Positions 1-29,589 of a stretch of DNA of 38,803 nt are shown here, in pieces (the first letter of the stretch is position 1; every line of letters starts with the position of its first letter). The notes beneath the pieces are model-generated. The model made no database searches. It was not told the origin of the DNA and was given only the letters and a program-made list of their open reading frames with translations. The DNA lies in the IMG/VR virus record IMGVR_UViG_3300030105_000473, positions 1-38,803 of that record. One strand, 5' to 3'. The DNA comes from a virus. The position numbers were made by a program, and so were the translations under genes.

Positions 1-1742
1 TACCTAATAATTTTGGCGGTTACCAATTAGGTATGGGTAGTATGGGTAATAACGTGGGTACACCTTATGATGCCAATGAGTTTAGCAGCACAGGTATGGC
101 CATGGGTAATGATTTTGCACCTGCGCCAATTGTATCTGCACCAGTTTTATTAGATCCTGCGTCAGACGCTGCATCTTTCTTGGCTAGGTCTCAAGCCCTT
201 AGCAATAAGTTTAATATTCCTCTTGAAGATCTTTATGATGAAAATAAAAAAATTCTTCAACAAAATACTTCCAATATTCAAAGCGTAATTCCTCCTGCTC
301 CTCAAGTAGATAGTGGTAGGTTTGATCCACCACCTGCTCGCAGCACTGTGAATAGTGGCCCTTCTCCTCAAGTAAATAGTGGTAGGTTTGATTCAGCTCC
401 TTCTAGACGCTCTGCAAATCCAGAAAGGGCATCAAGAGGATTTACTTTTGGACTAGCAGAAGGTGGCCACATTAATGGATACGCCATGGGCGGTCCTGAA
501 GATCAATATGAAATTGAAAAAGATATTGTCCTTAATGCACCTGTGCCTGACGTTTCTTTAGAAGCTGATGTTATTGATGAATCTTTAAGCCTGCAAGGAC
601 TTATAGATCAACAAACTACAAACGCAACAGGCGCAGGATCTAACACCTCAGAAATGCTTAAAATGTTGAAGCAAGGCCAAGTTGATTATGGTGATCAAAT
701 TTCAGAGCAACAAGGAAATTACAATACCGAAACCCAAGCACTTAAAGACATGATGATTAAAATGGCTGATAGTCAAAGCGTTGGACCATCAGAGTCAGAG
801 AAATGGTTTAGGATTGCAGCAGCCATGGGCGCTCCAACAAAGACTGGAAGTTTCTTTGAAAATCTTGGGCTGACCAGCGAGGCTTTGGGTGATATATCAA
901 AAGAACGAAGGGCAGCACAGTCGGCTGGAGATTTAGTTAAAATGAAAGCTGCAGAGTTTAGTCTTGGATTATTAAAAGACCAGCTTGACTCCACTAAAAC
1001 TATGTCTGCAGCGCAACTTACAAGAAATCAAAATCTTCAAGACAGAATTATGGAGTGGGATCAAAACGCAATCATAAGAGCCGATGAAAATATATTTAAT
1101 TTGATGACGATTAAAGAAGAGCGAGAATGGGAAGTAGAAAATAGAAAGACAATACCTCAAACAGCTGCAGGATTAGCAGCCGAAGAAGCTGGCTACGATA
1201 AAGGAACTTCTGATTACAGAGAGTTTGTTAAAGCTGTAGTTGATCGAGAGAATAGAATTAAAACCTTGAACATTGAAGCGTTAGAAAGAAAAGCTAATAG
1301 CCTTACTAAGCCTGAAATTGATGCAAGAAAAGAAGCTGATGAAGACATAAAGTCAACTGAAGGCGCAATTAAGTTGCTAGAAGAAGCCTTGGAATTAAGT
1401 CCAAAGTCTTACCCAGGGGATTGGTACAGTGTTACCAAGAAATCTTTGCAAGGAATTATTAATTCAGACGATCAAAAGTACAAAGATTCAGAGCGGTTAG
1501 AAAACTTATTAAGTCAAGGCGCACTAGCAACTCTGAAGGCAACTTTCGGAGGCAATATATCTGACGGAGAACGTGCGGCTAACTTAGAGATCACTGGCGC
1601 TAAAATGAAGTCAGAAAAATCACGTACCGAAACAATTAAACTTGCTTTAGAGACAATGCGAGAGTACGAAAAAGAAGCAAATGATAGATTAACAGACATT
1701 CTGTCAGGCGATTACGTTAAAAGAACTAAGTCTACTATATAA
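1..1742 (+). CDS. Putative internal virion protein, 5'-truncated by window edge
   Basis: The reading frame is open from base 3 to the stop at 1742. The ATG at 33 has no ribosome binding site and the residues before it (PNNFGGYQLG) resemble those after it, so the true start lies left of the window. At least 579 residues are present. The N-terminal part is low-complexity and Gly/Pro/Ser-rich, and holds the motifs LAEGGHI and YAMGG. The middle and C-terminal parts are charged and helical. The C-terminal region contains LKATFGGNISDGERA, a pattern I associate with large virion proteins of marine podovirus-like phages. The gene sits 12 bases before another large late gene, so an internal or DNA-ejection role is likely but not shown. 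The family is not identified. Confidence 0.7.
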   Translation, partial: PNNFGGYQLGMGSMGNNVGTPYDANEFSSTGMAMGNDFAPAPIVSAPVLLDPASDAASFLARSQALSNKFNIPLEDLYDENKKILQQNTSNIQSVIPPAPQVDSGRFDPPPARSTVNSGPSPQVNSGRFDSAPSRRSANPERASRGFTFGLAEGGHINGYAMGGPEDQYEIEKDIVLNAPVPDVSLEADVIDESLSLQGLIDQQTTNATGAGSNTSEMLKMLKQGQVDYGDQISEQQGNYNTETQALKDMMIKMADSQSVGPSESEKWFRIAAAMGAPTKTGSFFENLGLTSEALGDISKERRAAQSAGDLVKMKAAEFSLGLLKDQLDSTKTMSAAQLTRNQNLQDRIMEWDQNAIIRADENIFNLMTIKEEREWEVENRKTIPQTAAGLAAEEAGYDKGTSDYREFVKAVVDRENRIKTLNIEALERKANSLTKPEIDARKEADEDIKSTEGAIKLLEEALELSPKSYPGDWYSVTKKSLQGIINSDDQKYKDSERLENLLSQGALATLKATFGGNISDGERAANLEITGAKMKSEKSRTETIKLALETMREYEKEANDRLTDILSGDYVKRTKSTI

Positions 1743-1754
1743 GAGGGCAGGAAC

Positions 1755-3842
1755 ATGGCTGATAATTATTGGGGAAATATGTCTCGCGCTGTTCTTGGTC
1801 AAGGCTTGGCTATGGGCTGGGGCGATGAGCTTGAAGCTAAAATCAGAACTTTATCTGGGGATGAAACCTACGAAGAAGAACTGAACATGATCAATGATAG
1901 CTACAATAAATTTTCAGAAGAAAACACAGGCGCTGCGTTAGCCGGAGAAGTGGCTGGCGGTTTTGTTCCTTTGATTGGATCTTATTTAGCCACAGGATTA
2001 TCAGGCGGTGCAGCAGCCCCAGCTGCTATTGCTAACTCAGCGCGTATGCTTAGTGTCCTAAATAAAATTAGGCAAGGAACTCAGACAGCAACTCAAGCAG
2101 CCAAGTCTTCAAAGATTTTAAACAATCCTTTGACGAATAATCCTTTAACTAGATTAGGCAATAAGGTTGCTACAGGAACAGGAAAGGTACTTGTTAATAA
2201 CCCTCTTGGCAGAGGATTTACAGCTGGAACAACCACAGGCCTTGTAGACGGCGCTGGCGCTGCTGATCAAGGAGAAAGAGTAAAAGGTGGTTTAATAGGA
2301 TCAGCATTTGGAGGAACGCTAGGATTGGCTCTTCCAATCACAGCAAGAACTGGTAAAGCTTCATGGAATTGGCTTTCGGAACGCCTGCTTGCCGATGATT
2401 CAGATATTACAGAGGCGGCTCTTGCAAGAATATTTAAGGCCGTAACCTCTAGAGGTGGAAGCATTAAAGACGTTGTAGATCAAGTAAATCTTGATAGATC
2501 TAGGGGCATTGATCAAAGCACTATAGCTAACGCAAGTCCAGCTTTAGCTAAACAAGCTAGATTTGTACTAAATGCTCAACGTGGAGATGCTCCAGAAATA
2601 ATTGAAGAAGAAGTTGGAGGAATGCTGGCTGGATCACGCCAAAAAGCAGCTCAAGCAGTTAAAGATAGTTTAAGCGAAGTTAACTATTACGATCAGCAAG
2701 ATTTGTTACTTGGAGAGCTTAGACGAAATGCAGACGGTGCTTACAAAAAAGCTTACGCATTTGGATTAGTAGACGATCCTAGAATAATGACTCTTCTTGC
2801 AGAAGATGACAACTTTAAAGCCGCTTACAATAGAGCACAGGCTATCGCTAAAACAGAACAAAGTGCAGCTAAATTAAGAGGTGAGTTGCCTAGTGATTTT
2901 GCAATGATTGATCTTAATGTAGAAGGCGCTATTCCTGATGTAAGAACGCTAGATTACATTAAACGCGGCATGGATGACTTGCTAAGAAAAGGTAAAACAA
3001 ACTCAGACGGCGGTCTTGGTCCGACAGAAACATCTGCCATAAGAGGCTTAAAAAATGATTTTCTTAATGTGCTTGATGAAGCAACCACAGTTGATGGCGT
3101 TTCAGAGTACAAAGAGGCTCGTAAGCTTTATAAAGGCGACATTGAGGTTCTTGAGTCCTTAGAGATGGGTCTTGAAAATTTTCAAAGCATGGCTCCAGAA
3201 GAAGTTAAGAGGATGCTTAACGACCTTAGCGCAGCTGAAGCTGAGAGCTTTGTGATTGGTGCAACAAGAAGTATATTGAATAAAATTACTAATCCTAGAG
3301 GAAACTCTAACTACGCACTTAATGTAATTAACGCGCCAGCGGATGCAACAAAGCTTAAAATGCTGTTTCCAGATGCTAAAAAAGAAGGATTTAAACTTTT
3401 AGAGGCCGTTCTTTTAAGAGAGAGCCAACTTTATAAACAAGGAAATAGAATTCTGGGAGGATCTTCAACTCAATCAAATCAAGCTGGAGTTAGAGACTTA
3501 GAAGATTCAGAAGGTATGGGTAATGCTATGGCTACGGGTTTAGAGACACTTTTTAACCCTACTTCGGGTCTTCTTAGGTTTGCAACCAATGCGCTAAGGT
3601 CTGCAAAATTGCCTGAAGCAACTCAAGAAAAAATGGCAACAATGTTGATGTCAAAAGATCCAGAAGATGTTTCAGCTGTAGTTAAGGCTTTGCAGGAATT
3701 TCAAGAAAAGAACACTCCTAAAGTTATTAACCTTAATACAAATGAAGTTCTTGCAGTTTCAGGAGCGGCAAACTTATTGGCTGAAGATCCTAAAGAAACT
3801 CCGTCAACATCAAGAGCAGCAGACGAATTACTGGTGGAATAG
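1755..3842 (+). CDS. Putative internal virion / DNA-ejection protein
   Basis: A 695-residue protein starting at an ATG preceded by GAGGGCAGGA. Residues of about 65-100 form an Ala/Gly-rich hydrophobic stretch (AGEVAGGFVPLIGSYLATGL), and another Gly/Ala-rich stretch lies near residues 155-200. The rest is helical and charged. This composition, with membrane-active-looking glycine zippers near the N-terminus, resembles ejection proteins of podoviruses, but I recognise no named family. It is co-directional with the preceding large virion gene and precedes the lysis genes. The C-terminus overlaps an open frame in the -1 register (3794-4021), so a longer frameshifted product is possible though unproven. 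Confidence 0.65.
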   Translation: MADNYWGNMSRAVLGQGLAMGWGDELEAKIRTLSGDETYEEELNMINDSYNKFSEENTGAALAGEVAGGFVPLIGSYLATGLSGGAAAPAAIANSARMLSVLNKIRQGTQTATQAAKSSKILNNPLTNNPLTRLGNKVATGTGKVLVNNPLGRGFTAGTTTGLVDGAGAADQGERVKGGLIGSAFGGTLGLALPITARTGKASWNWLSERLLADDSDITEAALARIFKAVTSRGGSIKDVVDQVNLDRSRGIDQSTIANASPALAKQARFVLNAQRGDAPEIIEEEVGGMLAGSRQKAAQAVKDSLSEVNYYDQQDLLLGELRRNADGAYKKAYAFGLVDDPRIMTLLAEDDNFKAAYNRAQAIAKTEQSAAKLRGELPSDFAMIDLNVEGAIPDVRTLDYIKRGMDDLLRKGKTNSDGGLGPTETSAIRGLKNDFLNVLDEATTVDGVSEYKEARKLYKGDIEVLESLEMGLENFQSMAPEEVKRMLNDLSAAEAESFVIGATRSILNKITNPRGNSNYALNVINAPADATKLKMLFPDAKKEGFKLLEAVLLRESQLYKQGNRILGGSSTQSNQAGVRDLEDSEGMGNAMATGLETLFNPTSGLLRFATNALRSAKLPEATQEKMATMLMSKDPEDVSAVVKALQEFQEKNTPKVINLNTNEVLAVSGAANLLAEDPKETPSTSRAADELLVE

Positions 3843-10130: not shown

Positions 10131-10988
10131 CTAACCCTCTTCAAATAAATCACCTTGACACCCAAAGACTTCGCAACTTTCAGCGCAGCCACCATTATTT
10201 CCTCGCATTCTCAAAAGAATCTCGTCTTTACTAACGTCTGCAAATGAATCCTGGGCGCTTTTAAATGTGTTATTGCCGCGATACATAATCAAAGGATCAG
10301 TAACTCTTGTATCAATAATTCGTATAGGTTGAGTGTTTAGCATATCCCAAAACTCAGCCGCTAATTCTGGCTCGTCAATTGCAGCAAGGGCTATCTTGTT
10401 GACTCCTTTCTTGATGCAAAAAACACAGTTGCCTAGCCATTCATCAATTCCTAAGTCAAATGGCTGAGTCTTCCAAAAACCTAAAATGTCTTGCTTATCC
10501 ATAGGTGATATTTCAGCCAAAAATCTGTAACCCTTTTTAGGCTTTAATCGCCTTGGCTCGTCAATCCTAATGCCAAGCCATGAGGTGTAATTGTTGCGCC
10601 CAAAAGTTTCATCACAGTATTTTTTATAAGGCGCTGTTTTCATTCGATCTGTACACATTGCTCCGTGAATAAATGGCGTGGAGTAACACTTCATCATTTC
10701 TTTCCAGGGGCCGTAATCATCACAAATATCATCAATACTTACTTCTTTATACTTTGGGCCAATGCCAACCTCTGTAGTCATTACCGCCCTAATACAAACT
10801 AAATCTATTTCAAAATGACTAACAACCTGTCTAATAAATTCGTATGTCTTGGGATGCTCTGCGCCTGTGTCCATAAAAACATACTTGACGTTATTAATAA
10901 GCCCTTGAGACACCATTGTCTGTATTCGATAAATCATGTACGCAGACGTTCGTCCTCCGCTAAAGCTAACTACGTTATATTCATTCAT
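10131..10988 (-). CDS. PAPS-reductase-like PP-loop protein
   Basis: A 285-residue protein of the phosphoadenosine-phosphosulfate reductase/ATP-pyrophosphatase superfamily. The N-terminal VVSFSGGRTSAYM is the PP-loop, FMDTGAEHPKT follows at the second strand, and CTDRMKTAPYKKY and GIRIDEPRRL are conserved further on. WLGNCVFCIKKG gives a Cys pair, and three Cys lie near the C-terminus (CAESCEVFGC), which may bind an Fe-S cluster. Phage members are common and are suspected to act in sulfur-dependent modification of nucleic acid rather than sulfate assimilation, but that is unproven here. It overlaps the methyltransferase by 8 bases. Confidence 0.85.
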   Translation of the reverse strand: MNEYNVVSFSGGRTSAYMIYRIQTMVSQGLINNVKYVFMDTGAEHPKTYEFIRQVVSHFEIDLVCIRAVMTTEVGIGPKYKEVSIDDICDDYGPWKEMMKCYSTPFIHGAMCTDRMKTAPYKKYCDETFGRNNYTSWLGIRIDEPRRLKPKKGYRFLAEISPMDKQDILGFWKTQPFDLGIDEWLGNCVFCIKKGVNKIALAAIDEPELAAEFWDMLNTQPIRIIDTRVTDPLIMYRGNNTFKSAQDSFADVSKDEILLRMRGNNGGCAESCEVFGCQGDLFEEG

Positions 10989-12282
10989 GTTGCATTTTTC
11001 CGTTTTTTGATTCTAATTCCTTTGATAAAACCATCCAAGCTTTAGCGGCAGTTTGAGGCACTACTCCGTTTCCCAAGAGTCTAATCCGGTCCACCCGGTC
11101 GGCACACCCATCAACCACTCGACCCAGTCGGGGTTCAAGTGGCCAGAGACTATGTCCACTCCCACTCCCCCAATTGCTGCGTTCGGAAGCGCATCGAATC
11201 TCCTGCTCTTGCCGTCCTTGCGCGTCAATGCATTTTCCTTGTAACCGCCCTTCCAGTCTCTCGTTGTTGGAGTTGGTAACATTTCCTGATCGAAAACTAT
11301 TGCCGTCAGATTGTTCTGATGATTGTCTCGCATCTTCTTTGTCGCCTTGTCCGAGTCCTGAACTGTTGGTGTCGGCCACATCTTCACTGCAGTCGCTAAC
11401 CCGTCCCCACTCGTTTTGCTCATTCCTTTTTGATTGTAATTCCCATGAACTGTCGGCGTAGGCCAAGCTCCCCTCTCTGCTATCTGATCGTTTAGGTTTG
11501 CTGACCATCCCCTCTCGACTCCATGAATTCCTCCCTTCCAGTCTCTTGCCATAGGAGTTGCCCACTGAGCTGGCTCTCTCACTATCACTTCTGTCTCCAA
11601 GCGCTTCTTCGGATTTCCCAGTTCTATCTCTTTCTGAGATGGACCATTCACTGAACTGACTCTCGGTGTTGGCCAATCGGCTTCCGCTCTGCCCACGCTC
11701 CGACTTAATCCTGCCTGCAGGCTGTTTATCTCGCAGTGTGGAGTCTTGTTCGCATCGTTGACCGCTGGCGTACCCCATGATGTAGACTCGCTTTCTCTGA
11801 TGAGGAGCGCCGACTTCACGCGCTGAGAATATTCCCCACGCCGTTTTATAACCAAGGCTTTCCAAGTCGCTAATGACTTCTCTGAGTCCAAGACTGATGT
11901 GTCCTTCGACATTTTCAAAAAAACATCGAACAGGTCTAACTGCTCGGATGATGTCGCAGATGTAGGGCCAGAGGTGTCTGGGGTCTTCTTCTCCAAGTCG
12001 ATTTCCAGCGGAGCTAAAAGGTTGGCAGGGATAACCGCCAGTGAGGATGTCAACTCGGTCTCGAAATGGCTCCACTGGCAAGGTTTTAAGATTCGACCAC
12101 ACAGGTGCGGCATCCATTTTATTCGCTTCCATCTTGGTAACCAAGTTCGCAATGGCGAAGGCTTCGATCTCCACATGAGCGATGACTCGATGTTCAACTC
12201 CTGCAAGGTCAAGTCCTCTTTCGACTCCACCATATCCTGTACATAAGGAGAGGACAGTTGGTAATTTTTGGGTAGTATCCAC
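10981..12282 (-). CDS. DNA C5-cytosine methyltransferase
   Basis: A 433-residue C5-MTase. Motif I is LCTGYGGVERGLDLAG, motif IV is GGYPCQPFSSAG with catalytic C86, motif VI is FFENVEGH at 121-128, motif VIII is PHQRKRVYIMG, and motifs IX-X are DRIRLLGNGVVPQTAA. Between VIII and IX lies an Asn/Ser/Arg/Gly-rich stretch of about 200 residues with repeated LANTES/VADTNSS-like units in place of an ordinary target recognition domain. The start is GTG (ATGTG, shared with the overlapping frame) behind AAGGA. It probably protects phage DNA from host restriction or marks it. Its DNA is shared with the 407-codon frame. Confidence 0.9.
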   Translation of the reverse strand: MDTTQKLPTVLSLCTGYGGVERGLDLAGVEHRVIAHVEIEAFAIANLVTKMEANKMDAAPVWSNLKTLPVEPFRDRVDILTGGYPCQPFSSAGNRLGEEDPRHLWPYICDIIRAVRPVRCFFENVEGHISLGLREVISDLESLGYKTAWGIFSAREVGAPHQRKRVYIMGYASGQRCEQDSTLRDKQPAGRIKSERGQSGSRLANTESQFSEWSISERDRTGKSEEALGDRSDSERASSVGNSYGKRLEGRNSWSREGMVSKPKRSDSREGSLAYADSSWELQSKRNEQNEWGRVSDCSEDVADTNSSGLGQGDKEDARQSSEQSDGNSFRSGNVTNSNNERLEGRLQGKCIDAQGRQEQEIRCASERSNWGSGSGHSLWPLEPRLGRVVDGCADRVDRIRLLGNGVVPQTAAKAWMVLSKELESKNGKMQHE

Positions 12283-19705: not shown

Positions 19706-22700
19706 ATGTCTTTGAAAGACGATCTTAAATTGAATACGCCAAGGCGCACACCCGGACATCCCACAAGTTCTCACGTAGTGAAGACCAATGTAGACGGCAA
19801 TCCTAAGATGATTAGGTTTGGCGAGCAGGGCGCAGACACTGCTGGCAAGCCCAGTCCTAATGATTCCGATGCCACTAAGGCGAAGCGCAAAGCTTTTAAA
19901 GACCGCCATGCTAAGAACATAGCCAAAGGCCCATCCTCTGCAGCTTATTGGAGTAACAGGGTCAAGTGGGCCGAAGGTGGTCCAGTAGAAGACAAGCGTC
20001 CAGCTAACTTGCGTCAGATCATTACTGATGTTGGCGCAGACACTCTGTCTGGAATGTTTGGCCCCATTGCCGCTGCTGGCGTTTCTCTAGCAGAGCAAGC
20101 GTTTACTGACAACACCATTGAAGAGATGCAAGCTAACAATGAGATGTACAACGACTTTCTGAACTACAACCCAAGGACTGAAGAAGCTCAAGCGGCTAAC
20201 CAGTATGCCATGGGCAAGATAGGCGAAGGTGTTACAGCCTTGGCTCAGAAGTACAACGAAAACAAAGACAGCCTCGGCTATATACCTGACATAGTTGACT
20301 ACGGCATGGATCAATACAGCCAATTAGATCCAGAGACTCAATTTGCTATAGAGAATGCGCTAACGGTAGGCGAGGTTCTCCCCATCGGTAAAGCGGCAGG
20401 CATGGCAAAGAATGCAGTACGGAATGCTGGCGACAGGCGAATGATCAGCAATGCAGCTGCTGATGTCCCGGACGAAAGTTCGTACTTGCCACTGCAAGAC
20501 AGGCTGGGAGAGATGGGCGCTCGACAAGAGATGGTCGGCTATCACGGATCGCCTTATAATTTCGATAGGTTTGATAGATCCAGAAGAGGCACTGGCGAAG
20601 GAGCGCAAGCTTTTGGCGCAGGAGTTTACATTGCTGAGAGTGAAGGCGTGGCTAAACAATACAAGCCAGTGACTCCTAAAGAAAATGAAGGACTATATAG
20701 AGATTCTCTGGATGCCATGAGTATTCAGGATATACGAAAAGAAGTTGAAGAAGTTATGGGAATTGATGCTTCTGATATTACAAGAGATGACATTGATGAC
20801 TGGGTTATTGATGAACTTGTAAATGAAGATAATACGTCAATGAACTCGCGTGGCTTTATTACATCTGGTGATCAAGGATCAAACTTATACTCAGTAAACC
20901 TACCAGACGAAAAGATAGCGAAGATGATGGACTGGGACAAGCCTCTTAGCGATCAGCCTGAGATAGCCAAGCTTCTAGGAATGTCTGTTGAAGAAGTTCC
21001 TAGCATTGAGGATTACTTAAAGTTAGTTAAGAAAGGCGACTCTGACAATCCTAACTATGCTTACCAAGTAGAGGGAATGCACTCGTCAACGCCAGAGGGC
21101 GCTGCAAAGTTTGCAAGGGATAATGCCATAAAGGGAATGCAGCAAAGAACTGGAATGGGTCAAACAGGAAAGCAATACTATGAAGAGCTGGCTAGAGGTT
21201 TTCATAGCAATCCAAACATGAACATTATGGACGCTCAATCAGAAGCGTCTAAGGTATTAAGTGAAGCAGGCGTTCCTGGAATAAAGTATCTGGATGGAAC
21301 AAGCCGCAAGGCAGGCGAAGGCACACGAAACTTTGTAGTGTTTGATGAGAACGATCTGACTGTGCTGACTCGTAATGGCGAGAATGTTAACGCACCACCT
21401 AAGCCAATCATGTTTAGGGATGTTGCACAGCCTGATCTTACTCCAGACCAGCTATCTAAGTCGTTTAAAGACGGAGAGATAACCAATTACGGAAGGCAGA
21501 TTGCCCGGAAGAGAGCAGCAAAAGACATGGCAGGACAGACCGCTGAGGTTAAGAAGCTGTCTGAAGTATTAGGCGACATGAACATCGAGGGCAAAGTTAG
21601 CATGGTTGCCACTCAGTCTGACAGGACTGGCATCAAAGACGGCGCAGGTCCGGGCTATCCTTTGATTGGTCGGCAGTATTCAGAGATGGCTAAACTGTAT
21701 CAAGATCAGTTTGGAGAGGCTCCTGTGCCTAGAATGCTGGATGAGAATGGAGAAATCACTGACTATCCTGTGTGGGCGGTTGATGCAAAAAGCACAATAG
21801 CCAGCCTAAGAAACAACTTAAAAGAAGAAGGAACTATACTCGTTCCAATGATAGGATCGCCTAATCAACTTCGCACCAATAAAGAAGTGTTTAAGAAACT
21901 AAAGAAAGAATTTATGGCTGGCGTTAAGGCCAACAAGTTAGACGCAGATCAGGCTGATAAGATAAACCTTAACCTAGAGGCGCTTACTGGAGATAAGATG
22001 GACATCAGAGATCCGTCATCTTGGGTAGAACTTGAGAAGACCTTTGATGGTCGTGGCGCATTGGCTGACATTATGAGCGGAAAGACACCGCAGGCTATAG
22101 CTGCAGTCGGAGCAAGAAGTAAATGGCGCACTAAGCTCAATAAGAAGCGAATTGCTGATGGGCTTGAGCCTCTTGACCTAAACCCAAAGACGGCTCCTTT
22201 AGGAGCGCGTAAAGGCCAGATATTTGACTACGACAAGATATTAGAGGACTCCACAGAGTCTGTACTTTTGGGCGCTGGAACTTTTGACATTGGCCCTTCA
22301 CTAATTCTTCCTTCTCGGTATAGGCAAAGTGAAACAATGCGTGATGCCCACCCTGGTTTTAAAGAGCAGCTGATGGGAAAGTTGGCCACAGACGACATCT
22401 TTACGCCAGCCCCACTTGAGATTGCGATGCCAGACTTCATTAACTATGGTCGAGGTCTTCATATGAAGTCTGGTCCCAACAAAAGACCGTTTAACTCTGG
22501 CGCGTATGGCATGAATGCTCGTATGGGCTACGAAGGTTTTGGTCTTCCAAGCCAGAAGATAGACGAAGATTATCTGAAGTACCTTCAGGACATGGGCTAT
22601 GCCGAAGGCGGTGAGGTTGAGGTAGCTGAAGAGGTTGGCTCTGAGTACGATGCTAACAAGATCAGTGCCATGGCTGATGATCTACTAAACGGCAATAGCT

Positions 22701-25351
22701 ACGCTGAAGGTGGTGAGGTTAAGAAGCAGGCAACTAGAGATGACACGATTGGTTACAACGCGCCCAGTTTACGCCGAGTAGTTGGTGATGTTATTACAGA
22801 CTTTGCCTCTGGTATAGCTGGACCTATTGCATCCTCTGCTATTTCTTTAGGTGAGCAATACTTCACCGACAATACGCTTGAAGAAATGGTGGCTAATAAC
22901 GAGGCTTACAATGATGCCCTTAACTTCAATCCCAGAACAAAAGAAGCTCAAGCTATTAATCAAGGCGCTATGCAAGGTCTAGGCGCTGTCGTTAACGAGG
23001 GCATTGAATACTATGACCGAAACAAAAAGCATCTATCTCCTGAAGTGCAGCAATCCATAGCAGCAACCGGGCAGGCGTGGGAAGACTTAGATCCTAGCAC
23101 GAAGTTTCTTATAGGAAATGCTGCCACAGTTGGCGAAGTCTTACCCATCGGCGGTGCGGTAAAGGCTGGCCTTAGAGTAGGCAGGAATGCAGTAGATCAA
23201 AGAAACTTAAACGCTGCTGCAGGGCAAGTACCCAGTGAAGCTTCTTACGAACCTTTACAGGATAGGCTAGAAGGTATGGGCGCAAGGCAGCTACAAGTTA
23301 GAGAGCCGGGCGATAATAACTTCTTGAATGAGTTTGACAGTAATGTTCTTTCAAGATATGGCAACACAACATTTACGACTAAAGATGGCTATACGTACTA
23401 CCAAAATTCTCTTGGGGAGATAGTTGATCATCTAGATCCTAATTTTAGAGATGAAGCTTACCCTAATCTCATAGAGTTTATGGAAGCAAACCCTAACGCA
23501 CAAAGAAGTAGTTCTGGACCATCAAATTCACCAATTACTTCACCAAAGACTGTCGCTCAAGGCTTAACTATAAAAAGCACTCCGCTTGCGTTAATGAATA
23601 GTGATGAAATGAGCGTTGATGAATTAGTCAAAATTAAAGATCAAATTGACAGTGACATAAGTATTGATGACATTGAAAATGAATTTAAAAAACAAATTGA
23701 GGCTGGCACCGCAGACCTTCCTCCAGAGATGTTAGACGCAACGCCTTCCGCTAAGTTTGGTTTTTTAACATCTAAAATGTTTCAATCAATAACTAATGAT
23801 GAAATATCAAGGACTCCAAAATTAGATTACTTTAATAGAACCTTCCCAGAAGCTGCTGCTGTTAGAACTGAAAAGCAATACCCAGGAGCAACGATGACTA
23901 ACCGATGGGTCAACACTAAGCTCAAGAAGTATCTGCAGAATGAAATGGGCACAGGGCAGAATGATTCGATTGTTAGAGTAGCTGGTGACGCAGATAACAT
24001 GCACTATGAAGTCACTAACTTTGATGAGGATCTGACCATGGATGAATTTGAGGATCAATTAAATCTTGCTCAGTACGATGTTAATGATTATGGCATGGAT
24101 AATAATCCAAACATACTTAGACAAGAATCAGCTTCAGACTTAGCTATGTCATTTGAAGGCGCTTCGGATCTTTTATTAGAACAGCAGCAGGCTGGGACTT
24201 TTAGGGACGAAGGACCATTTAGAAATAGATTATTAAAAAATATGAGTTACGATCAACGTAATCAAACCCGTGGTATTGATCGAGGAAGAGGTGGTCCAGA
24301 AGATTTAATGGATGAAGTATATGAAGCCAATACTTTCTTAAACAAAGTGCCGCCTGAAACTAATATTTTTGAGCTTGGTACATTTACTGCAGAAGATTTG
24401 CAACTAGAAGTTCTTACTCAGGGTGTGCGTGAGTTGGTTGATCCAACCAATGCATTAGGCTTGCCTCCAGAGTTGTACTTGCCCGGAGACAAAGTTTTAA
24501 AGATGTCAGTTGGAGATGTCTCTGCCAGAGTTGGCGATCTTCGAGAATGGAAAGATTTACAAACAACAAAAGGTTTTATAGAGTTAGCACAAGAGTCGCC
24601 TCGCATGAAAGACGATGGCTTTAATCTTGATTTTGCTAAAGAACAAGGCGCAACTTGGGTAGATATACCTGACACTTCAGATCCAAAAAATAAAAAGATT
24701 TGTAGGCTACTAGGTAAGGGAGGGAAGTGGTGTACAAAGCTTAATGATGAAGCGCTTAATTACGGATCTGGAGACAGCAGTCTTACTGTAATGCTTGATG
24801 GCGATGGGAAGCCTCATCTTCAAGTACAATTCACTACCTATAAAAATCACTTGGACAATGATGTCGTTTCAATTGCAGAGATAAAACCACCGGGCAATGG
24901 ATTTAGCAGTAACAAATCAAAGTCTTATATCAACAAAGACCCTAATTACGAATCTAAACTAACTGATTCTGTCATGGATTTTTTAAACAAAACAGATAAT
25001 GAAAGGCTAGTTGGTAATATTAATCCTGACGAATTAGAAATGTACGGGCTTGTTGACATTGATGACAATATGGCTATGGGAGAGATATTTGATGAAAAAT
25101 ATGGCGGTGTTGATGGGCTTGACATGGATGATGTGCTAGATATTTATAGTATTTATGAGTCCAAAAGAAAATTTAGCCCAGAAAAAACACCTAGAATTAT
25201 GCGCGAAAAGGAAGTAATGGACTACATAGATTCAGGCATATCTGATCTTGACCGAAGCGATTTTGATTTTGCTCGTGGCGGCTCAGTTAGTTTAGAATAC
25301 AACTCTGATATAATAAATCAAATGGCAGAACGCTTACTACAGGAGGCTTAA
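19706..25351 (+). CDS. Giant polyvalent protein with ART-like domain and internal duplication
   Basis: An 1881-residue protein between TerL and portal. Residues 30-88 match a phage motif (RFGEQG..., KAFKDRHAKNIAKGPSSAAYW). A repeat unit at about 103-275 recurs at about 1022-1195. Behind copy 1 lies an ADP-ribosyltransferase-like domain of the ART-PolyVal type: YHGSPYNFDRFD with FGAGVYIAE near 279-310 and GIKYLDGTSRKAGEGTRNF near 525-545. Copy 2 is followed by unrelated sequence, ending in a region with GKGGKWCTKLNDEALNYGSG near 1670 that recalls WCT-type modules of polyvalent proteins. A-(E/R)-GG motifs mark the borders (about 89, 970, 1005, 1857). It is probably packaged and delivered into the host with DNA; that is inferred. 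AGGAG precedes the ATG. Confidence 0.8.
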   Translation: MSLKDDLKLNTPRRTPGHPTSSHVVKTNVDGNPKMIRFGEQGADTAGKPSPNDSDATKAKRKAFKDRHAKNIAKGPSSAAYWSNRVKWAEGGPVEDKRPANLRQIITDVGADTLSGMFGPIAAAGVSLAEQAFTDNTIEEMQANNEMYNDFLNYNPRTEEAQAANQYAMGKIGEGVTALAQKYNENKDSLGYIPDIVDYGMDQYSQLDPETQFAIENALTVGEVLPIGKAAGMAKNAVRNAGDRRMISNAAADVPDESSYLPLQDRLGEMGARQEMVGYHGSPYNFDRFDRSRRGTGEGAQAFGAGVYIAESEGVAKQYKPVTPKENEGLYRDSLDAMSIQDIRKEVEEVMGIDASDITRDDIDDWVIDELVNEDNTSMNSRGFITSGDQGSNLYSVNLPDEKIAKMMDWDKPLSDQPEIAKLLGMSVEEVPSIEDYLKLVKKGDSDNPNYAYQVEGMHSSTPEGAAKFARDNAIKGMQQRTGMGQTGKQYYEELARGFHSNPNMNIMDAQSEASKVLSEAGVPGIKYLDGTSRKAGEGTRNFVVFDENDLTVLTRNGENVNAPPKPIMFRDVAQPDLTPDQLSKSFKDGEITNYGRQIARKRAAKDMAGQTAEVKKLSEVLGDMNIEGKVSMVATQSDRTGIKDGAGPGYPLIGRQYSEMAKLYQDQFGEAPVPRMLDENGEITDYPVWAVDAKSTIASLRNNLKEEGTILVPMIGSPNQLRTNKEVFKKLKKEFMAGVKANKLDADQADKINLNLEALTGDKMDIRDPSSWVELEKTFDGRGALADIMSGKTPQAIAAVGARSKWRTKLNKKRIADGLEPLDLNPKTAPLGARKGQIFDYDKILEDSTESVLLGAGTFDIGPSLILPSRYRQSETMRDAHPGFKEQLMGKLATDDIFTPAPLEIAMPDFINYGRGLHMKSGPNKRPFNSGAYGMNARMGYEGFGLPSQKIDEDYLKYLQDMGYAEGGEVEVAEEVGSEYDANKISAMADDLLNGNSYAEGGEVKKQATRDDTIGYNAPSLRRVVGDVITDFASGIAGPIASSAISLGEQYFTDNTLEEMVANNEAYNDALNFNPRTKEAQAINQGAMQGLGAVVNEGIEYYDRNKKHLSPEVQQSIAATGQAWEDLDPSTKFLIGNAATVGEVLPIGGAVKAGLRVGRNAVDQRNLNAAAGQVPSEASYEPLQDRLEGMGARQLQVREPGDNNFLNEFDSNVLSRYGNTTFTTKDGYTYYQNSLGEIVDHLDPNFRDEAYPNLIEFMEANPNAQRSSSGPSNSPITSPKTVAQGLTIKSTPLALMNSDEMSVDELVKIKDQIDSDISIDDIENEFKKQIEAGTADLPPEMLDATPSAKFGFLTSKMFQSITNDEISRTPKLDYFNRTFPEAAAVRTEKQYPGATMTNRWVNTKLKKYLQNEMGTGQNDSIVRVAGDADNMHYEVTNFDEDLTMDEFEDQLNLAQYDVNDYGMDNNPNILRQESASDLAMSFEGASDLLLEQQQAGTFRDEGPFRNRLLKNMSYDQRNQTRGIDRGRGGPEDLMDEVYEANTFLNKVPPETNIFELGTFTAEDLQLEVLTQGVRELVDPTNALGLPPELYLPGDKVLKMSVGDVSARVGDLREWKDLQTTKGFIELAQESPRMKDDGFNLDFAKEQGATWVDIPDTSDPKNKKICRLLGKGGKWCTKLNDEALNYGSGDSSLTVMLDGDGKPHLQVQFTTYKNHLDNDVVSIAEIKPPGNGFSSNKSKSYINKDPNYESKLTDSVMDFLNKTDNERLVGNINPDELEMYGLVDIDDNMAMGEIFDEKYGGVDGLDMDDVLDIYSIYESKRKFSPEKTPRIMREKEVMDYIDSGISDLDRSDFDFARGGSVSLEYNSDIINQMAERLLQEA
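20010..20520 (+). repeat. Intragenic duplication, copy 1
   Basis: Encodes residues of about 102-272 of the giant protein. It shares with copy 2 the segments FTDNTIEEMQANNEMYNDFL, NYNPRTEEAQAANQ, TVGEVLPIGKA and ESSYLPLQDRLGEMGARQ. The similarity is clear at protein level and diverged at DNA level, so the duplication is old. Confidence 0.85.
22768..23290 (+). repeat. Intragenic duplication, copy 2
   Basis: Encodes residues of about 1022-1195. Matching segments are FTDNTLEEMVANNEAYNDAL, NFNPRTKEAQAINQ, TVGEVLPIGGA and EASYEPLQDRLEGMGARQ. What follows differs from copy 1: there is no ART-like domain here. Confidence 0.85.
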
Positions 25352-25352
25352 C

Positions 25353-27944
25353 GTGGCTGAAGAAATTGAAGTTGAAGTTGAAGAAGTAACAATGGTAGAG
25401 CTTCCAGAAGAAGAAGAGCTTGAGGTTGAGGATACTGAAGACGGTGGGGCCATGGTTCGTATGGAGACTGTTTCTGTGCGAGAGGCTTCTGACCACTTTG
25501 AGAACATCGTGGAGGAAGTTGACCAGAGCTTACTAAAGACATCAATCAATGACTTGATGACTAAGATTGAGCGAGACAAAGAGGCTCGCCAGAAGCGAGA
25601 CCTTCAGTACGAAGAAGGCTTGCGCCGTACTGGCTTAGGCGATGACGCTCCGGGCGGTGCCCAGTTTCAAGGAGCTAACAAGGTTGTGCATCCTATGCTG
25701 GTCGAGGCGTGTGTTGATTTCTCTGCACGTTTTATCAAAGAAGTGTTTCCCCCAGGCGGTCCAGTAAAGTCTAAGATCATTGGCGAGGCAGACAAGTCCA
25801 AGGTTGGAAAAGCCCAGCGCAAGACTGAGTTTATGAACTGGCAGACCACCGAGCAGATGGTTGAGTTCCGTTCAGAACTTGAGCAGCTTAGTACGCAGTT
25901 GCCGCTTGGCGGCGGTCAGTACATGAAGTTTATGTGGAACGCTCGATTCATGCGGCCTACTTCTGAGTTTGTGCCGATTGATGACATCTACCTACCATTC
26001 TCAGCTACTAACTTTTACACCGCAGAGCGCAAGACTCACGTTCAGTATATTACTCAGATGGAATACGAGAAGCGCGTAGAGGCAGGCATGTATGCTGATG
26101 TGGACCTACCTACTCCTACCGAGCCGGAGTTTAGTGCAGCTGAACGCGCTAATGAAAAGATTGAGGGAAAGCAAAACACCTCATACAATGAAGACGGGCT
26201 ACGCACCATATTTGAAATTTACACGTACATGGATTTTGAAGATGGAGAAGGTTTAGCGCCTTACATTTTAAGCGTTGATAAGTCCTCAGATAAAGCACTT
26301 TGTCTTTACCGTAACTGGGAAGAAGACGATGTAAGGCAAAAAGAATTGCACTGGATCGTAGAGTTTCCATTCGTTCCTTGGCGTGGCGCTTACCCTATCG
26401 GCCTAACTCACATGATCGGTGGCCTAAGCGGAGCCGCAACTGGCGCACTACGAGCGTTACTTGACTCAGCGTATATTCAGAACGTGCCCACATTATTAAA
26501 GCTAAAGGGTGGCCCAGGTGGTCAGACTTTAAATGTCCAGCCCACTGAAATAGTCGAGATGGAAGGTGGCGCACTTATTGATGATGTGCGTAAGTTAGCG
26601 ATGCCCTTACCTTTTGCTGGACCTAGTCCTACTTTGTTTCAACTGTTAGGTTTCTTAGTTGATGCAGGCAAAGGTGTTGTGCAGACTTCATTTGAGAAGT
26701 TTAACGACCAGAATCCTAATGCCCCAGTTGGCACTACGATGGCTATCATTGAGCAGGGAATGGTCGTGTTTAGCTCAATCCACTCTCGCTTACATGCGTC
26801 TATGGCTAGAAGCTTTAAAATTCTTCATCGCATCAACAGCATGTACTACACGCAGGAAGAGCTTGATGCGTTAGACGCTGGATTAGATATATCTGTAGAG
26901 GACTTTGATGGCCCAGCAGATGTAGTACCAATTAGTAATCCTTCAATATTCAGTGAAGCGCAACGATTTGCTCAGATTCAAGCAATCATGCAACGCGCAC
27001 AGTTAATGCCTCAGATGTATGACGCACTGGCTGTGGAAGAAATGTTCTTAAACACCTTGAAAATACCTCCTTCAGAGGTTTTAGCCCCAACTCCGGGATC
27101 GGAAGACAGAGATCCAGTCAGTGAAAACGTGGCGGCAGCGATGGGTCAGCCTATATACGTGCTTCCACAGCAAGATCATTTGGCTCACCTACAAGTGCAT
27201 TTAGCATTCTTAAAATCTCCTATGTTTGGCTCAAACCCAGTCATTATGAGCAATTTCTTTTATCCGATGGCTATGCATATGCGTGATCATTTATTGAATT
27301 ACTATTTAGTGGAGGCGCATAATGCAGTGGATGAAGCGCAGACTGAGCAATTGATTCCTGAAGAAGCAGAGCAGCAGGTTGAGGTAATATTAAAAGTCCA
27401 ACAGTTTATTGAGCAGCAGTTAGGGCCATTTGCTCAAGAATTAGCGCAGATAAACGAAATGGCTCAACAGTTCAAGCCTGAAAATCCAGCACAAGCACAA
27501 GGTGACGCAATGAAGATTGCAGAATTAAGTGCCCAGATCAAGCAAGGTGAGCTTCAGCAGCGCACAGAGCGTGATGGAGCTAGGATTCAGCTTGATTCTG
27601 CTAAAATGCAGGCGGCTAATGAGATTGCACAGCTTAAAATGCAGCAGACTGCTGAAATTGAACGTGCAAAGCTTGCGTCTAGCGAGTCAGATCGGGAAGA
27701 AAGGTCAGAATTGGCTGGACTTCGTGAATTGTCTGCAACAGAGCGCAATAATGTTAGCGAAATGTCTGAAACAGACCGTCAAAACACTCGTGAGCGTAAC
27801 GAAAATCAGCGCAAAGCAGATGATTTGGCAGCAAGAGAGCGTATGAATAGCTCAGACAACATGACCGCCAAAGAACTGGCGGCTATGGAAATGGAGTCTG
27901 GTCAGAAGACTTCTTATACAAGTGGAAACGGGATTGATCCTTAA
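25353..27944 (+). CDS. Portal protein
   Basis: An 863-residue protein starting with GTG; AGGAGG lies 6 bases upstream. It has a very acidic N-terminus (about residues 1-30), then a portal core (FQGANKVVHPMLVEACVDFS, TQLPLGGGQYMKFMWNARF, VEFPFVPWRGAYPIGLTHMI, the LLDSAYIQNVPTLLKLKGG region). The C-terminal 170 residues form a long Gln/Glu/Arg-rich coiled coil, as in barrel extensions of podovirus portals. It would form the dodecameric DNA channel at the vertex and dock TerL. The assignment rests on core motifs, size and position after terL; homology to P22-type portals is likely but distant. Confidence 0.85.
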   Translation: MAEEIEVEVEEVTMVELPEEEELEVEDTEDGGAMVRMETVSVREASDHFENIVEEVDQSLLKTSINDLMTKIERDKEARQKRDLQYEEGLRRTGLGDDAPGGAQFQGANKVVHPMLVEACVDFSARFIKEVFPPGGPVKSKIIGEADKSKVGKAQRKTEFMNWQTTEQMVEFRSELEQLSTQLPLGGGQYMKFMWNARFMRPTSEFVPIDDIYLPFSATNFYTAERKTHVQYITQMEYEKRVEAGMYADVDLPTPTEPEFSAAERANEKIEGKQNTSYNEDGLRTIFEIYTYMDFEDGEGLAPYILSVDKSSDKALCLYRNWEEDDVRQKELHWIVEFPFVPWRGAYPIGLTHMIGGLSGAATGALRALLDSAYIQNVPTLLKLKGGPGGQTLNVQPTEIVEMEGGALIDDVRKLAMPLPFAGPSPTLFQLLGFLVDAGKGVVQTSFEKFNDQNPNAPVGTTMAIIEQGMVVFSSIHSRLHASMARSFKILHRINSMYYTQEELDALDAGLDISVEDFDGPADVVPISNPSIFSEAQRFAQIQAIMQRAQLMPQMYDALAVEEMFLNTLKIPPSEVLAPTPGSEDRDPVSENVAAAMGQPIYVLPQQDHLAHLQVHLAFLKSPMFGSNPVIMSNFFYPMAMHMRDHLLNYYLVEAHNAVDEAQTEQLIPEEAEQQVEVILKVQQFIEQQLGPFAQELAQINEMAQQFKPENPAQAQGDAMKIAELSAQIKQGELQQRTERDGARIQLDSAKMQAANEIAQLKMQQTAEIERAKLASSESDREERSELAGLRELSATERNNVSEMSETDRQNTRERNENQRKADDLAARERMNSSDNMTAKELAAMEMESGQKTSYTSGNGIDP

Positions 27945-28639
27945 TGGCATTCTTACAAAGCAACATACCGCACTTTAAGTGCTGGGTCAGGAAAGAATAC
28001 ACTCACAACCATGAGAAGTTTCATGGCGAGTGGATTCACGCCATGGCCGTAGCTGTTACAACTGTACCTAATCGTTCTTTAAGCTTTCAGATGATCTTTA
28101 CTGGCGCTGAAACTTACGACACAGATGAGCAGAATGTTCATGGAGGTGCAATGTGGGCCAGAATGCCTATAACAGCCTTGATGGGTGACACTCCAGTTAG
28201 CGAGTGGCCAGAACCGATGGCTACACATGAAGCCCAGCCTTGGGACTGTGCGTCACATACACATAGTGTTTATGTTTTAGACCGATGCACACCAGCGCCT
28301 TGGCTCGCAAAAATTGATGGGAAATTTTATCCTGCCAAATACTATTTTACGGTTGACTACACTGATTCAGAAGTTGCAGATGATCCAGCTCAACATAAGC
28401 AGGCACATGTCTTAGAACTTCTTGATGCAGGAAAGTGGACAGGTAATATAGTTGCCTTACCTAACAATAGAGTTCGGGTAAGTCACCCGGCTTGGTTTGA
28501 ACTAGGAGAAGGTGCTCCTGATTTTAGACCTTCTCAACATACCCATTACAGTAAATCTGATCTGGATTACACGTTAGACGTTAATCAAGTTTTTGATAAC
28601 ATTTATGCAGAGGAAGAAGAAGATGATGATGAAAAGTAA
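27944..28639 (+). CDS. Conserved virion-associated protein (231 aa)
   Basis: Starts in a TAATG overlap with the portal stop. It is rich in Trp, His and Tyr (MWARMPITALMG, WPEPMATHEAQPWDCASHTH, APWLAKIDGKFYPAKYYF) and has an acidic C-terminal tail (YAEEEEDDDEK). Similar proteins follow the portal in uncultured marine phage genomes. Role unknown; a head-completion or head-associated function is a guess from position. Confidence 0.65.
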   Translation: MAFLQSNIPHFKCWVRKEYTHNHEKFHGEWIHAMAVAVTTVPNRSLSFQMIFTGAETYDTDEQNVHGGAMWARMPITALMGDTPVSEWPEPMATHEAQPWDCASHTHSVYVLDRCTPAPWLAKIDGKFYPAKYYFTVDYTDSEVADDPAQHKQAHVLELLDAGKWTGNIVALPNNRVRVSHPAWFELGEGAPDFRPSQHTHYSKSDLDYTLDVNQVFDNIYAEEEEDDDEK

Positions 28640-28995: not shown

Positions 28996-29189
28996 ATATA
29001 GAATCAAAGCTATTGAATATCATCAAGGCCGATCAAGCGGATTTTGCGCTTGAAGCCTTGAAGAGACCTCAAGACCGAGATACTTTTGAGTACGGGTACC
29101 TCGTTGGAATGGTTGCAGGTTACGAAGCAAGCATTAATGTACTTTTAAATCTAATAGACGAGGATAGGAATGGAAACGAAGACTTATGA
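28992..29189 (+). CDS. Small hypothetical protein (65 aa)
   Basis: Starts in an ATGA overlap. Helical and acidic (MNIESKLLNIIKADQADFAL, then YGYLVGMVAGYEASINVLL). Small proteins with FxYGxxxGxxxGx(E) next to head genes are common in marine phages. Function unknown. It overlaps the GroES-like gene by 20 bases. Confidence 0.65.
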   Translation: MNIESKLLNIIKADQADFALEALKRPQDRDTFEYGYLVGMVAGYEASINVLLNLIDEDRNGNEDL

Positions 29190-29589
29190 GAATACACTTG
29201 CGGAGGCTTTTCCAGATGTTTGTTCTGGTATTCAGCCTTTCGGTAGCCGTGTTCTGGTTCAAATACGCACCGCTAAAAATAAAACAGCGGGTGGAATCCT
29301 ACTAACCACAGACACCACTGATACAGAGAAGTGGAATACACAGGTCGCCAAAGTTATAACAGTTGGGCCATTAGCTTTTAAAAATCGTAATACGATGGAA
29401 AGCTGGCCAGAGGGTAACTGGTGCAAGGAAGGTGAATTTGTGAGAGTTGCTAAATATGGAGGTGATCGCTGGGAAGTACCAATTCCTGACGCACTGCATG
29501 GTGAAGCAGCAATGTTTGTAATTTTTAATGATCTTGACATTTTGGGCAGCGTTATAGGCGATCCCCTAAAAGTTAAGGCATTCATCTGA
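29170..29589 (+). CDS. GroES-like co-chaperonin (Cpn10)
   Basis: A 139-residue protein. IQPFGSRVLVQI matches the first GroES strand, and KNKTAGGILLTTDT matches the mobile loop (TKSAGGIVLT in E. coli GroES). VAKVITVGP corresponds to GEVLAVGNG and MFVIFNDLDILGSV to the closing strand LIMSESDILAIV. It is longer than GroES (97 residues) owing to an N-terminal extension and an insert with SWPEGNWCKEGEFVRVAKYG. Like T4 gp31 it probably caps host GroEL to fold a large phage protein, plausibly the capsid protein encoded just downstream. Confidence 0.88.
   Translation: METKTYENTLAEAFPDVCSGIQPFGSRVLVQIRTAKNKTAGGILLTTDTTDTEKWNTQVAKVITVGPLAFKNRNTMESWPEGNWCKEGEFVRVAKYGGDRWEVPIPDALHGEAAMFVIFNDLDILGSVIGDPLKVKAFI

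What the first reader, a model, noticed from the sequence alone, without database searches (positions are those of the whole stretch)
19706..25351. 1881-residue polyvalent protein with a duplicated module, only one copy carrying an ART domain
A module of about 170 residues occurs twice, 920 residues apart. Copy 1 leads into an ADP-ribosyltransferase-like domain of the ART-PolyVal kind. Copy 2 leads into different sequence ending in a WCT-type region. Each half ends with A-(E/R)-GG followed by an EY-(D/N)-x(n)-I-x-x-MA helix. This looks like a fusion of two delivered effectors sharing a packaging or delivery module. The gene lies between terL and portal, where a structural or injected protein is expected. 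The shared module may be the delivery tag and the variable parts the payloads.
Basis: partly seen in the sequence, partly recalled or inferred. Interest (0 to 1): 0.78.

Follow-up and report, generated by a model that had tools for sequence, protein, structure and literature searches.

The report
Phage effector carrier with swappable payloads
An uncultured marine phage carries, between its DNA-packaging and portal genes, a giant protein built like a cassette rack: constant end pieces and short repeated tags stay the same in related phages while the enzyme payloads between them (here an ADP-ribosyltransferase and an acetyltransferase-like domain) are swapped, doubled or deleted, which suggests that each virion delivers its own set of effectors into the host.

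Summary
Residues ~101-277 and ~1021-1197 of the 1881-aa protein are copies (50% identity, E 5e-46). Copy 1 leads into an ART-PolyVal-type domain. Copy 2 leads into a PcfJ-like region with a predicted GNAT-like fold.

Wider context: in 79 loci from about 60 IMG/VR contigs, the terL-portal interval is a cargo slot. It ranges from 89 bp (erased, leaving codons of one tag helix) to 6.2 kb (2002 aa), while terL and portal stay conserved. Nearly identical phages carry different payloads behind the same module: ART, methyltransferase, DUF7178-like, zeta-toxin kinase, PcfJ/GNAT-like, or none. Other slot proteins carry lysozyme or transglycosylase domains.

The helical module is restricted to one subgroup. 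The near-universal parts are an N-terminal phrog_7595 carrier domain and a 'YAEGGxV...YDxxxIxxIA' tag at domain joints and C-termini (47 of 52 proteins; never found outside slot proteins here).

Most likely these are virion-packaged, injected polyvalent proteins with a standardised modular chassis. Packaging itself is inferred, not shown. This is a new variant of a known kind.

The parts
19706..19984 (+). N-terminal carrier domain, phrog_7595 family, residues 1-93
   Evidence: PHROG match 8-88, E 2e-27; standalone homologues in cultured marine phages; 35 of 43 slot proteins; AF2 pLDDT mostly 70-87 with helix-strand-strand-helix-helix
19970..19987 (+). A-E-GG-P-V joint after the carrier domain, residues 89-94
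   Evidence: separate carrier ORFs in other contigs end at the '..VKW' just before this joint
19994..20536 (+). Helical module, copy 1, residues 97-277, ending in the conserved border VPDESSYLPLQDRLGEMGARQ
   Evidence: AF2 all-helical, low confidence
20531..21391 (+). Payload 1: ART-PolyVal-like ADP-ribosyltransferase domain, residues 276-562
   Evidence: Pfam PF18760 E 5e-4; phiGT1 gp5 E 4e-11; profile hits L026, L051, L168, L174, L153, L045; alignment A7; absent or replaced in close relatives
21398..22600 (+). Shared 'core' domain of unknown function, residues 565-965
   Evidence: 25 ORFs by profile, in permuted positions; 89-94% identical in phages whose upstream payload differs
22601..22723 (+). 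Internal GG-helix tag (residues 966-994) and second A-E-GG-E-V joint (1000-1006)
22754..23296 (+). Helical module, copy 2, residues 1017-1197
   Evidence: tree groups copy-2 sequences of close relatives apart from copy 1
23795..25237 (+). Payload 2: PcfJ-like/WCT domain, residues 1364-1844, GNAT-like fold predicted for 1614-1783
   Evidence: 56 ORFs by profile; AF2 confident for 1565-1845; BFVD hits to PcfJ-like phage proteins, E 8e-15; GNAT chains, best Z 9.4
25271..25351 (+). C-terminal GG-helix tag, residues 1856-1881 plus stop codon
   Evidence: AF2 disordered loop then C-terminal helix
18128..19696 (+). terL, upstream border of the slot
   Evidence: phrog_38 E 7e-89; 72-100% identity in relatives, 30% in L029
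25353..27944 (+). Portal-position gene (863 aa), downstream border of the slot
   Evidence: 58-99% identity in relatives, 31% in L029; no PHROG or Pfam match

Best explanation
The gene is the cargo protein of a dedicated terL-portal slot: a phage polyvalent effector protein on a standardised modular chassis. A constant N-terminal phrog_7595 domain and short GG-helix tags recruit the protein into the assembling head, where the tags also act as flexible joints between independently folding payloads. At infection it is ejected with the DNA, and the payload enzymes (here an ADP-ribosyltransferase and a PcfJ/GNAT-like domain) act on host proteins early in infection. The helical module is a subgroup-specific adaptor that ends in a conserved border where payload cassettes are exchanged; it was duplicated, so that one polypeptide delivers two different payloads. 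Shown by sequence: duplication, slot, payload exchange, tag specificity and placement, minimal carriers, split carriers, loss. Inferred: packaging, ejection, catalytic activity and targets.
For: Duplication, E 5e-46. Slot position is invariant: in every locus where a flank is recognisable, terL and/or portal border the module protein. The interval runs from 89 bp to 6156 bp with terL 72-100% and portal 58-99% identical, L029 apart. Payload exchange behind near-identical modules: e.g. L008 vs L016 modules 95% identical, payloads unrelated; 9 clusters in all. In L005/L006/L008 the ART is absent, joining 1-277 to 565-1215; L004 and L010-L012 have a methyltransferase instead. Other slot proteins carry zeta toxin (E 1e-14), ART-PolyVal (E 1.7e-19), SLT (E 8e-25), phage lysozyme (E 3e-8). 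Cell-wall enzymes and a PHROG 'internal virion protein with endolysin domain' match fit an entry role. Minimal proteins of 132 and 237 aa hold carrier and tags without payload. Tag: 57 in slot ORFs (53,186 aa); 5 elsewhere (191,208 aa), all five in truncated slot proteins. Only 4 of 230 A-x-GG motifs lie inside a domain although domains cover 47%. L056 and L091 slot proteins share a domain with window ORF 1755-3842 (phrog_5880). Precedent: the large DarB protein of P1 is packaged through an N-terminal signal (PMC9024508).
Against: No proteomics: no member is cultured (no module or payload-2 match in INPHARED) and no host genome was found. The tag is not shared with other late proteins of the same phages, so it is not a general head-packaging signal. 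In some contigs the carrier domain is a separate gene, so it need not be covalently joined to the payload. The ART Pfam score is below the curated cut-off and no ART structure was predicted. The module model has low confidence. GNAT similarity is a fold match only; no canonical CoA-binding motif was identified.
Confidence: 0.62

Rival explanations
1. The slot protein is not packaged: it is a late-expressed intracellular effector or anti-defence array, and its place between terL and portal only reflects co-expression with late genes.
For: No direct virion evidence; the tag is not shared with other structural proteins; the slot can be empty.
Against: Cell-wall-degrading SLT and lysozyme domains recur in the slot and make sense for entry; phrog_7595 homologues lie in head or late regions of cultured phages; phage polyvalent proteins with the same domains are predicted, and in P1 shown, to be in the head (PMC5512222, PMC9024508).
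Confidence: 0.22
2. The A-x-GG-x-V joints are processing sites: a protease cuts the precursor at each GG so that payloads are packaged or released as separate proteins.
For: Joints sit almost only between domains (4 of 230 inside domains); natural split genes break at the first joint; the position is rigid while the flanking payloads change.
Against: No protease domain was recognised in the window ORFs or payloads scanned; the conserved helix downstream of GG is not needed for a cleavage site; the extreme C-terminal position (GG about 20 residues from the end) would release only a short peptide.
Confidence: 0.2
3. It is an essential structural protein of the head-tail vertex, with decorative insertions.
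For: Location between terL and portal; constant N-terminal domain.
Against: L062, a 56.6-kb contig with ~80% identical terL and portal, lacks the gene and any carrier domain, keeping only tag codons; L060 has just 132 aa; size varies 15-fold.
Confidence: 0.05
4. The two halves are unrelated proteins fused by chance or by assembly, and the double architecture has no function.
For: Copies have diverged to 50% identity; many relatives have one copy.
Against: The same fused gene is found on independent contigs at 98-99.5% identity; double modules recur in L004, L005, L006, L027, L033, L048 and L051, in L027 apparently by a separate duplication.
Confidence: 0.03

Closest known systems
Phage polyvalent proteins (Iyer et al. 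2017, PMC5512222)
   Same: Very long multidomain proteins near phage late genes, with ART, GNAT, zeta-toxin-like kinase, methylase and lysozyme domains, predicted to be packaged and injected; mosaicism is known (e.g. Helicobacter prophages).
   Different: Here a single genomic slot, a constant phrog_7595 carrier domain, a repeated GG-helix joint and C-terminal tag, empty and split carriers, and a duplicated adaptor module. PcfJ, linkers and tandem arrangements were not found by term search in that paper.
MuF polymorphic toxins (Jamet et al. 2017, PMC5576092)
   Same: Head-gene locus next to portal; constant part fused to variable enzymatic domains including ART.
   Different: muf genes lie immediately downstream of portal and their toxins are associated with temperate phages of Firmicutes, with the payload as a C-terminal extension; here the gene is upstream of portal, no MuF match was found, payloads are internal and multiple.
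P1 DarB and T4 internal proteins/Alt
   Same: Proteins packaged in the head, P1 DarB and T4 IPIII through an N-terminal targeting signal, and delivered to the host (PMC9024508); T4 Alt is an injected ART (PMC5512222).
   Different: No sequence relation was tested or seen; here the candidate signals are a folded domain plus repeated C-terminal tags, and payloads are exchanged.
ART-PolyVal (PF18760) and phiGT1 gp5
   Same: Window residues 276-562 align with these; in phiGT1 the gene lies between portal and scaffold in the head region.
   Different: phiGT1 gp5 is a 388-aa protein without carrier domain or module.
PcfJ-like proteins (PF14284)
   Same: Payload 2 is structurally close to predicted PcfJ-like phage proteins and its profile extends over Pfam PcfJ regions in L089/L151.
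   Different: WCT in place of HCV in the key motif; Pfam does not score the window domain as PcfJ.

Membership tests
Phage polyvalent proteins | Two or more domains of disparate activity in one polypeptide | tested here: met
   ART-like plus PcfJ/GNAT-like in the window; ART, PcfJ, SLT, zeta toxin, lysozyme and methyltransferase across slot homologues
Phage polyvalent proteins | Gene in late, virion-gene context of a portal-terminase phage | tested here: met
   Between terL and portal in all loci with a recognisable flank
Phage polyvalent proteins | Packaged in the virion and injected | not testable with these tools
   No cultured member; phiGT1 mass spectrometry exists but its table was not readable here
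ART-PolyVal | Pfam gathering score reached | tested here: not met
   21.3 bits against 31.2 in the window protein; slot homologues L073 and L151 pass, so the window domain is called ART-PolyVal-like
ART-PolyVal | Conserved H, G..G.Y and terminal strand motifs over the full domain | tested here: met
   Invariant YHGS, GTGEG, G.Y and N.V.F in alignment A7
ART-PolyVal | ART fold and NAD-dependent activity | not tested
PcfJ-like | Pfam PF14284 match | tested here: not met
   No PcfJ match in P0001 at E 1; relatives L090 and L151 match
PcfJ-like | Structural similarity to PcfJ-like proteins | tested here: met
   BFVD E 8.5e-15, 8.3e-11 and 1.2e-8 to PcfJ-like phage proteins
GNAT fold | Fold match standing above background | tested here: inconclusive
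   Nearly all leading PDB rows are GNAT-fold proteins, best Z 9.4, 120 residues, rmsd 2.7; Foldseek E 3e-3 at best
MuF polymorphic toxin | MuF domain (PF04233/PF06152) | tested here: not met
   No MuF match in the window protein at E 1 or in slot homologues at E 1e-3
MuF polymorphic toxin | Gene immediately downstream of portal | tested here: not met
   Gene is upstream of the portal-position gene, downstream of terL

The most novel reading that the evidence does not exclude
The GG-helix tag plus phrog_7595 domain is a previously undescribed cargo-loading system: a short repeated peptide that docks any payload placed between its copies into the phage head (or marks it for release), turning the terL-portal interval into an exchangeable payload slot across a large group of uncultured aquatic phages.
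Probability: 0.35. Interest if true: 0.8.

Novelty: new variant of a known kind. Interest (0 to 1): 0.63.

Why it matters
How large polyvalent proteins are recognised and loaded into phage heads is known for very few cases (P1 DarB, T4 internal proteins). Here nature supplies the controls: empty carriers of 132 aa, split carriers, a phage with the slot erased, and near-identical phages with different payloads. The parts that stay constant through all these changes (carrier domain, GG-helix tag, module border) are the obvious candidates for loading or release signals, and each can be tested with a reporter. The payloads are also a catalogue of candidate early-infection effectors and counter-defence enzymes of uncultured aquatic phages.

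Tried and rejected
Module as general delivery tag: rejected, since most slot proteins lack it. Dockerin similarity of the tag: the Pfam Dockerin_1 hit in L058 lies at 764-789 and is unrelated to the tag. Tag shared with other virion proteins: no bipartite tag outside slot proteins; single A-x-GG motifs elsewhere are near the shuffled rate. HMM link of the module to ejection-like ORF 1755-3842: the profile-profile score is circular, because iterated rows included the module; only the independent phrog_5880 matches in L056 and L091 are kept. Fold of the module and N-terminus: PDB search of the low-confidence model gave nothing, sequence search neither. PDB sequence searches for payload 2 and ART gave no relative. 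Host search in GTDB genomes: nothing for module or portal. Literature: no paper on the phrog_7595 domain under the name I recalled for it (DUF6321), none describing the slot in the searches made. phiGT1 virion proteomics could not be read at gene level.

Full report
Setting. The window is 38.8 kb of a 42,059-base IMG/VR virus record. It holds a helicase-primase, terS, terL, the 1881-aa protein, an 863-aa portal-position gene, a GroES-like gene, a coiled-coil scaffold-like gene, a major capsid protein (Phage_capsid_4, E 6.5e-10), an SU10-type adaptor and tail-fibre-like genes. No tRNA was found.

The duplication. Residues 101-290 and 1021-1211 share 50% identity with one gap, E 5e-46. A profile of the module finds 43 ORFs in the fetched loci. 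In a tree, window copy 1 groups with copy 1 of L005, L008, L016 and L024, and the copy-2 sequences of L003-L006 group together (97/99), so this duplication predates the divergence of these phages; in L027 both copies are neighbours (100/98), which suggests a second duplication. Several long branches make the deeper order unsure.

The slot. In every module locus where a flank could be recognised, terL lies upstream and/or the portal-position gene downstream, even in L029, whose terL and portal are only ~31% identical. Fetching relatives by terL and by portal gave 79 loci, from about 60 contigs, with both flanks. The interval varies from 89 to 6156 bp and the encoded protein from 132 to about 2000 aa. 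L062 keeps only codons for ..DLAQKLMEGK*, the end of the tag helix of its relatives L060/L067, between terL stop and portal start; a search of its whole 56.6-kb record found no carrier protein. The gene is therefore dispensable, although completeness of that record is not certified.

Payload exchange. L005, L006 and L008 run from residue 277 straight to 565: the ART is missing, the flanks are 82% and 93% identical. L004 and L010-L012 hold a methyltransferase (PF13489, E 1e-5) at the same point. Clustering the sequence after 46 module occurrences gives 9 unlinked payload groups; 20 of 64 module pairs at 75% identity or more have different payloads, the closest being L008/L016 with 95% identical modules. 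One caution: the second cluster joins methyltransferase-bearing and payload-free forms because both continue into the core domain, so the number of payload types is if anything underestimated. Domain order is permuted: the core lies before payload 2 in the window but after it in L065.

What the payloads are. Across 43 slot proteins Pfam finds ART-PolyVal (5), DUF6973 (5), phage lysozyme (3), SLT transglycosylase (2), PcfJ (2), Methyltransf_23 (2), zeta toxin (1) and DUF7178 (1). Payload 1 of the window is ART-PolyVal-like: Pfam sub-threshold, but phiGT1 gp5 aligns at E 4e-11 and the motif residues are invariant in six sequences. Payload 2 belongs to the commonest cargo family (56 ORFs). Its model is confident for residues 1565-1845, resembles predicted PcfJ-like phage proteins, and its centre matches GNAT-fold proteins, best Z 9.4 over 120 residues at 2.7 A; Foldseek alone does not reach E 1e-3. 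I call it PcfJ-like with a probable GNAT-like fold, activity unknown.

What stays constant. phrog_7595 makes up residues 8-88 of the window protein and is matched in 35 of 43 slot proteins; it is also a standalone protein in cultured marine phages, in head or late regions, and a separate ORF ending in ..KW directly upstream of, or overlapping, the cargo ORF in L074, L087, L089, L090, L092, L111 and L153. The second constant is the tag, (Y/F)A(E/D/K)GG(S/P)V followed within a few residues by Y(D/N)xxx(I/V)(D/N)x(I/L)(A/V). It closes 47 of 52 distinct complete slot proteins (that call's comparison set of other ORFs includes further slot proteins and is not a clean control). A stricter pattern occurs 57 times in slot ORFs and 5 times in 191,208 residues of other ORFs, all five in slot proteins of contigs lacking a flank. 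Only 4 of 230 A-x-GG motifs fall inside a profile-defined domain, although domains cover 47% of residues. In the model the GG stretch is disordered and the rest a helix.

Mechanism. I propose recruitment of the slot protein into the head by carrier domain and tags, ejection with DNA, and action of the payloads in the new host. Sequence shows modularity, exchange, tag placement and dispensability. Packaging and ejection are inferred from gene position, from cell-wall hydrolases among the payloads, from a domain shared between slot proteins L056/L091 and late ORF 1755-3842 (phrog_5880), and from the precedents P1 DarB and T4 Alt (PMC9024508, PMC5512222). The tag might instead, or also, be a cleavage site; no protease was recognised.

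Place among known things. It is a phage polyvalent protein in the sense of Iyer et al. (PMC5512222) by architecture and context; the injection criterion is untested. It is not a MuF toxin. New here are the standardised chassis, the slot with its empty, split and erased forms, and the duplicated adaptor module.

Noticed in passing
L062:11551-11640: Slot erased in a 56.6-kb contig; only codons of the tag helix end (..DLAQKLMEGK*) remain between terL stop and portal start.
   Followed up: yes
window 29170-29589: GroES/Cpn10-like co-chaperonin gene (PF00166, E 2e-8) between portal and scaffold-like gene.
   Followed up: no
window 27944-28639: phrog_3704 protein (labelled ferredoxin, moron/auxiliary metabolic) directly after the portal-position gene, conserved in most relatives but not seen in L010.
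   Followed up: no
window 10981-12282 (-): DNA cytosine methyltransferase-like protein (by eye, not searched) with a long, compositionally biased Ser/Arg/Glu/Gly-rich insert.
   Followed up: no
window 10131-10988 (-): PAPS-reductase-like protein (PF01507, E 2.5e-7) next to a helicase-like gene and the DNA methyltransferase-like gene.
   Followed up: no
window 33-1742, residue ~141: Only non-slot window protein with a tag-like AEGG motif (FGLAEGGHINGYAMGG), without the following helix motif.
   Followed up: partly
L045 (OP947163.1): Rhodobacteraceae phage MD07 encodes a protein of about 3100 aa, annotated 'methyltransferase', that contains an ART-like domain and lies near an internal virion protein gene.
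   Followed up: partly
L163:14929-15387; L156:12079-12429; L154:10521-10811; L029:9503-9880: Small proteins with an A-K-GG-x-V motif encoded downstream of the portal in several relatives.
   Followed up: no
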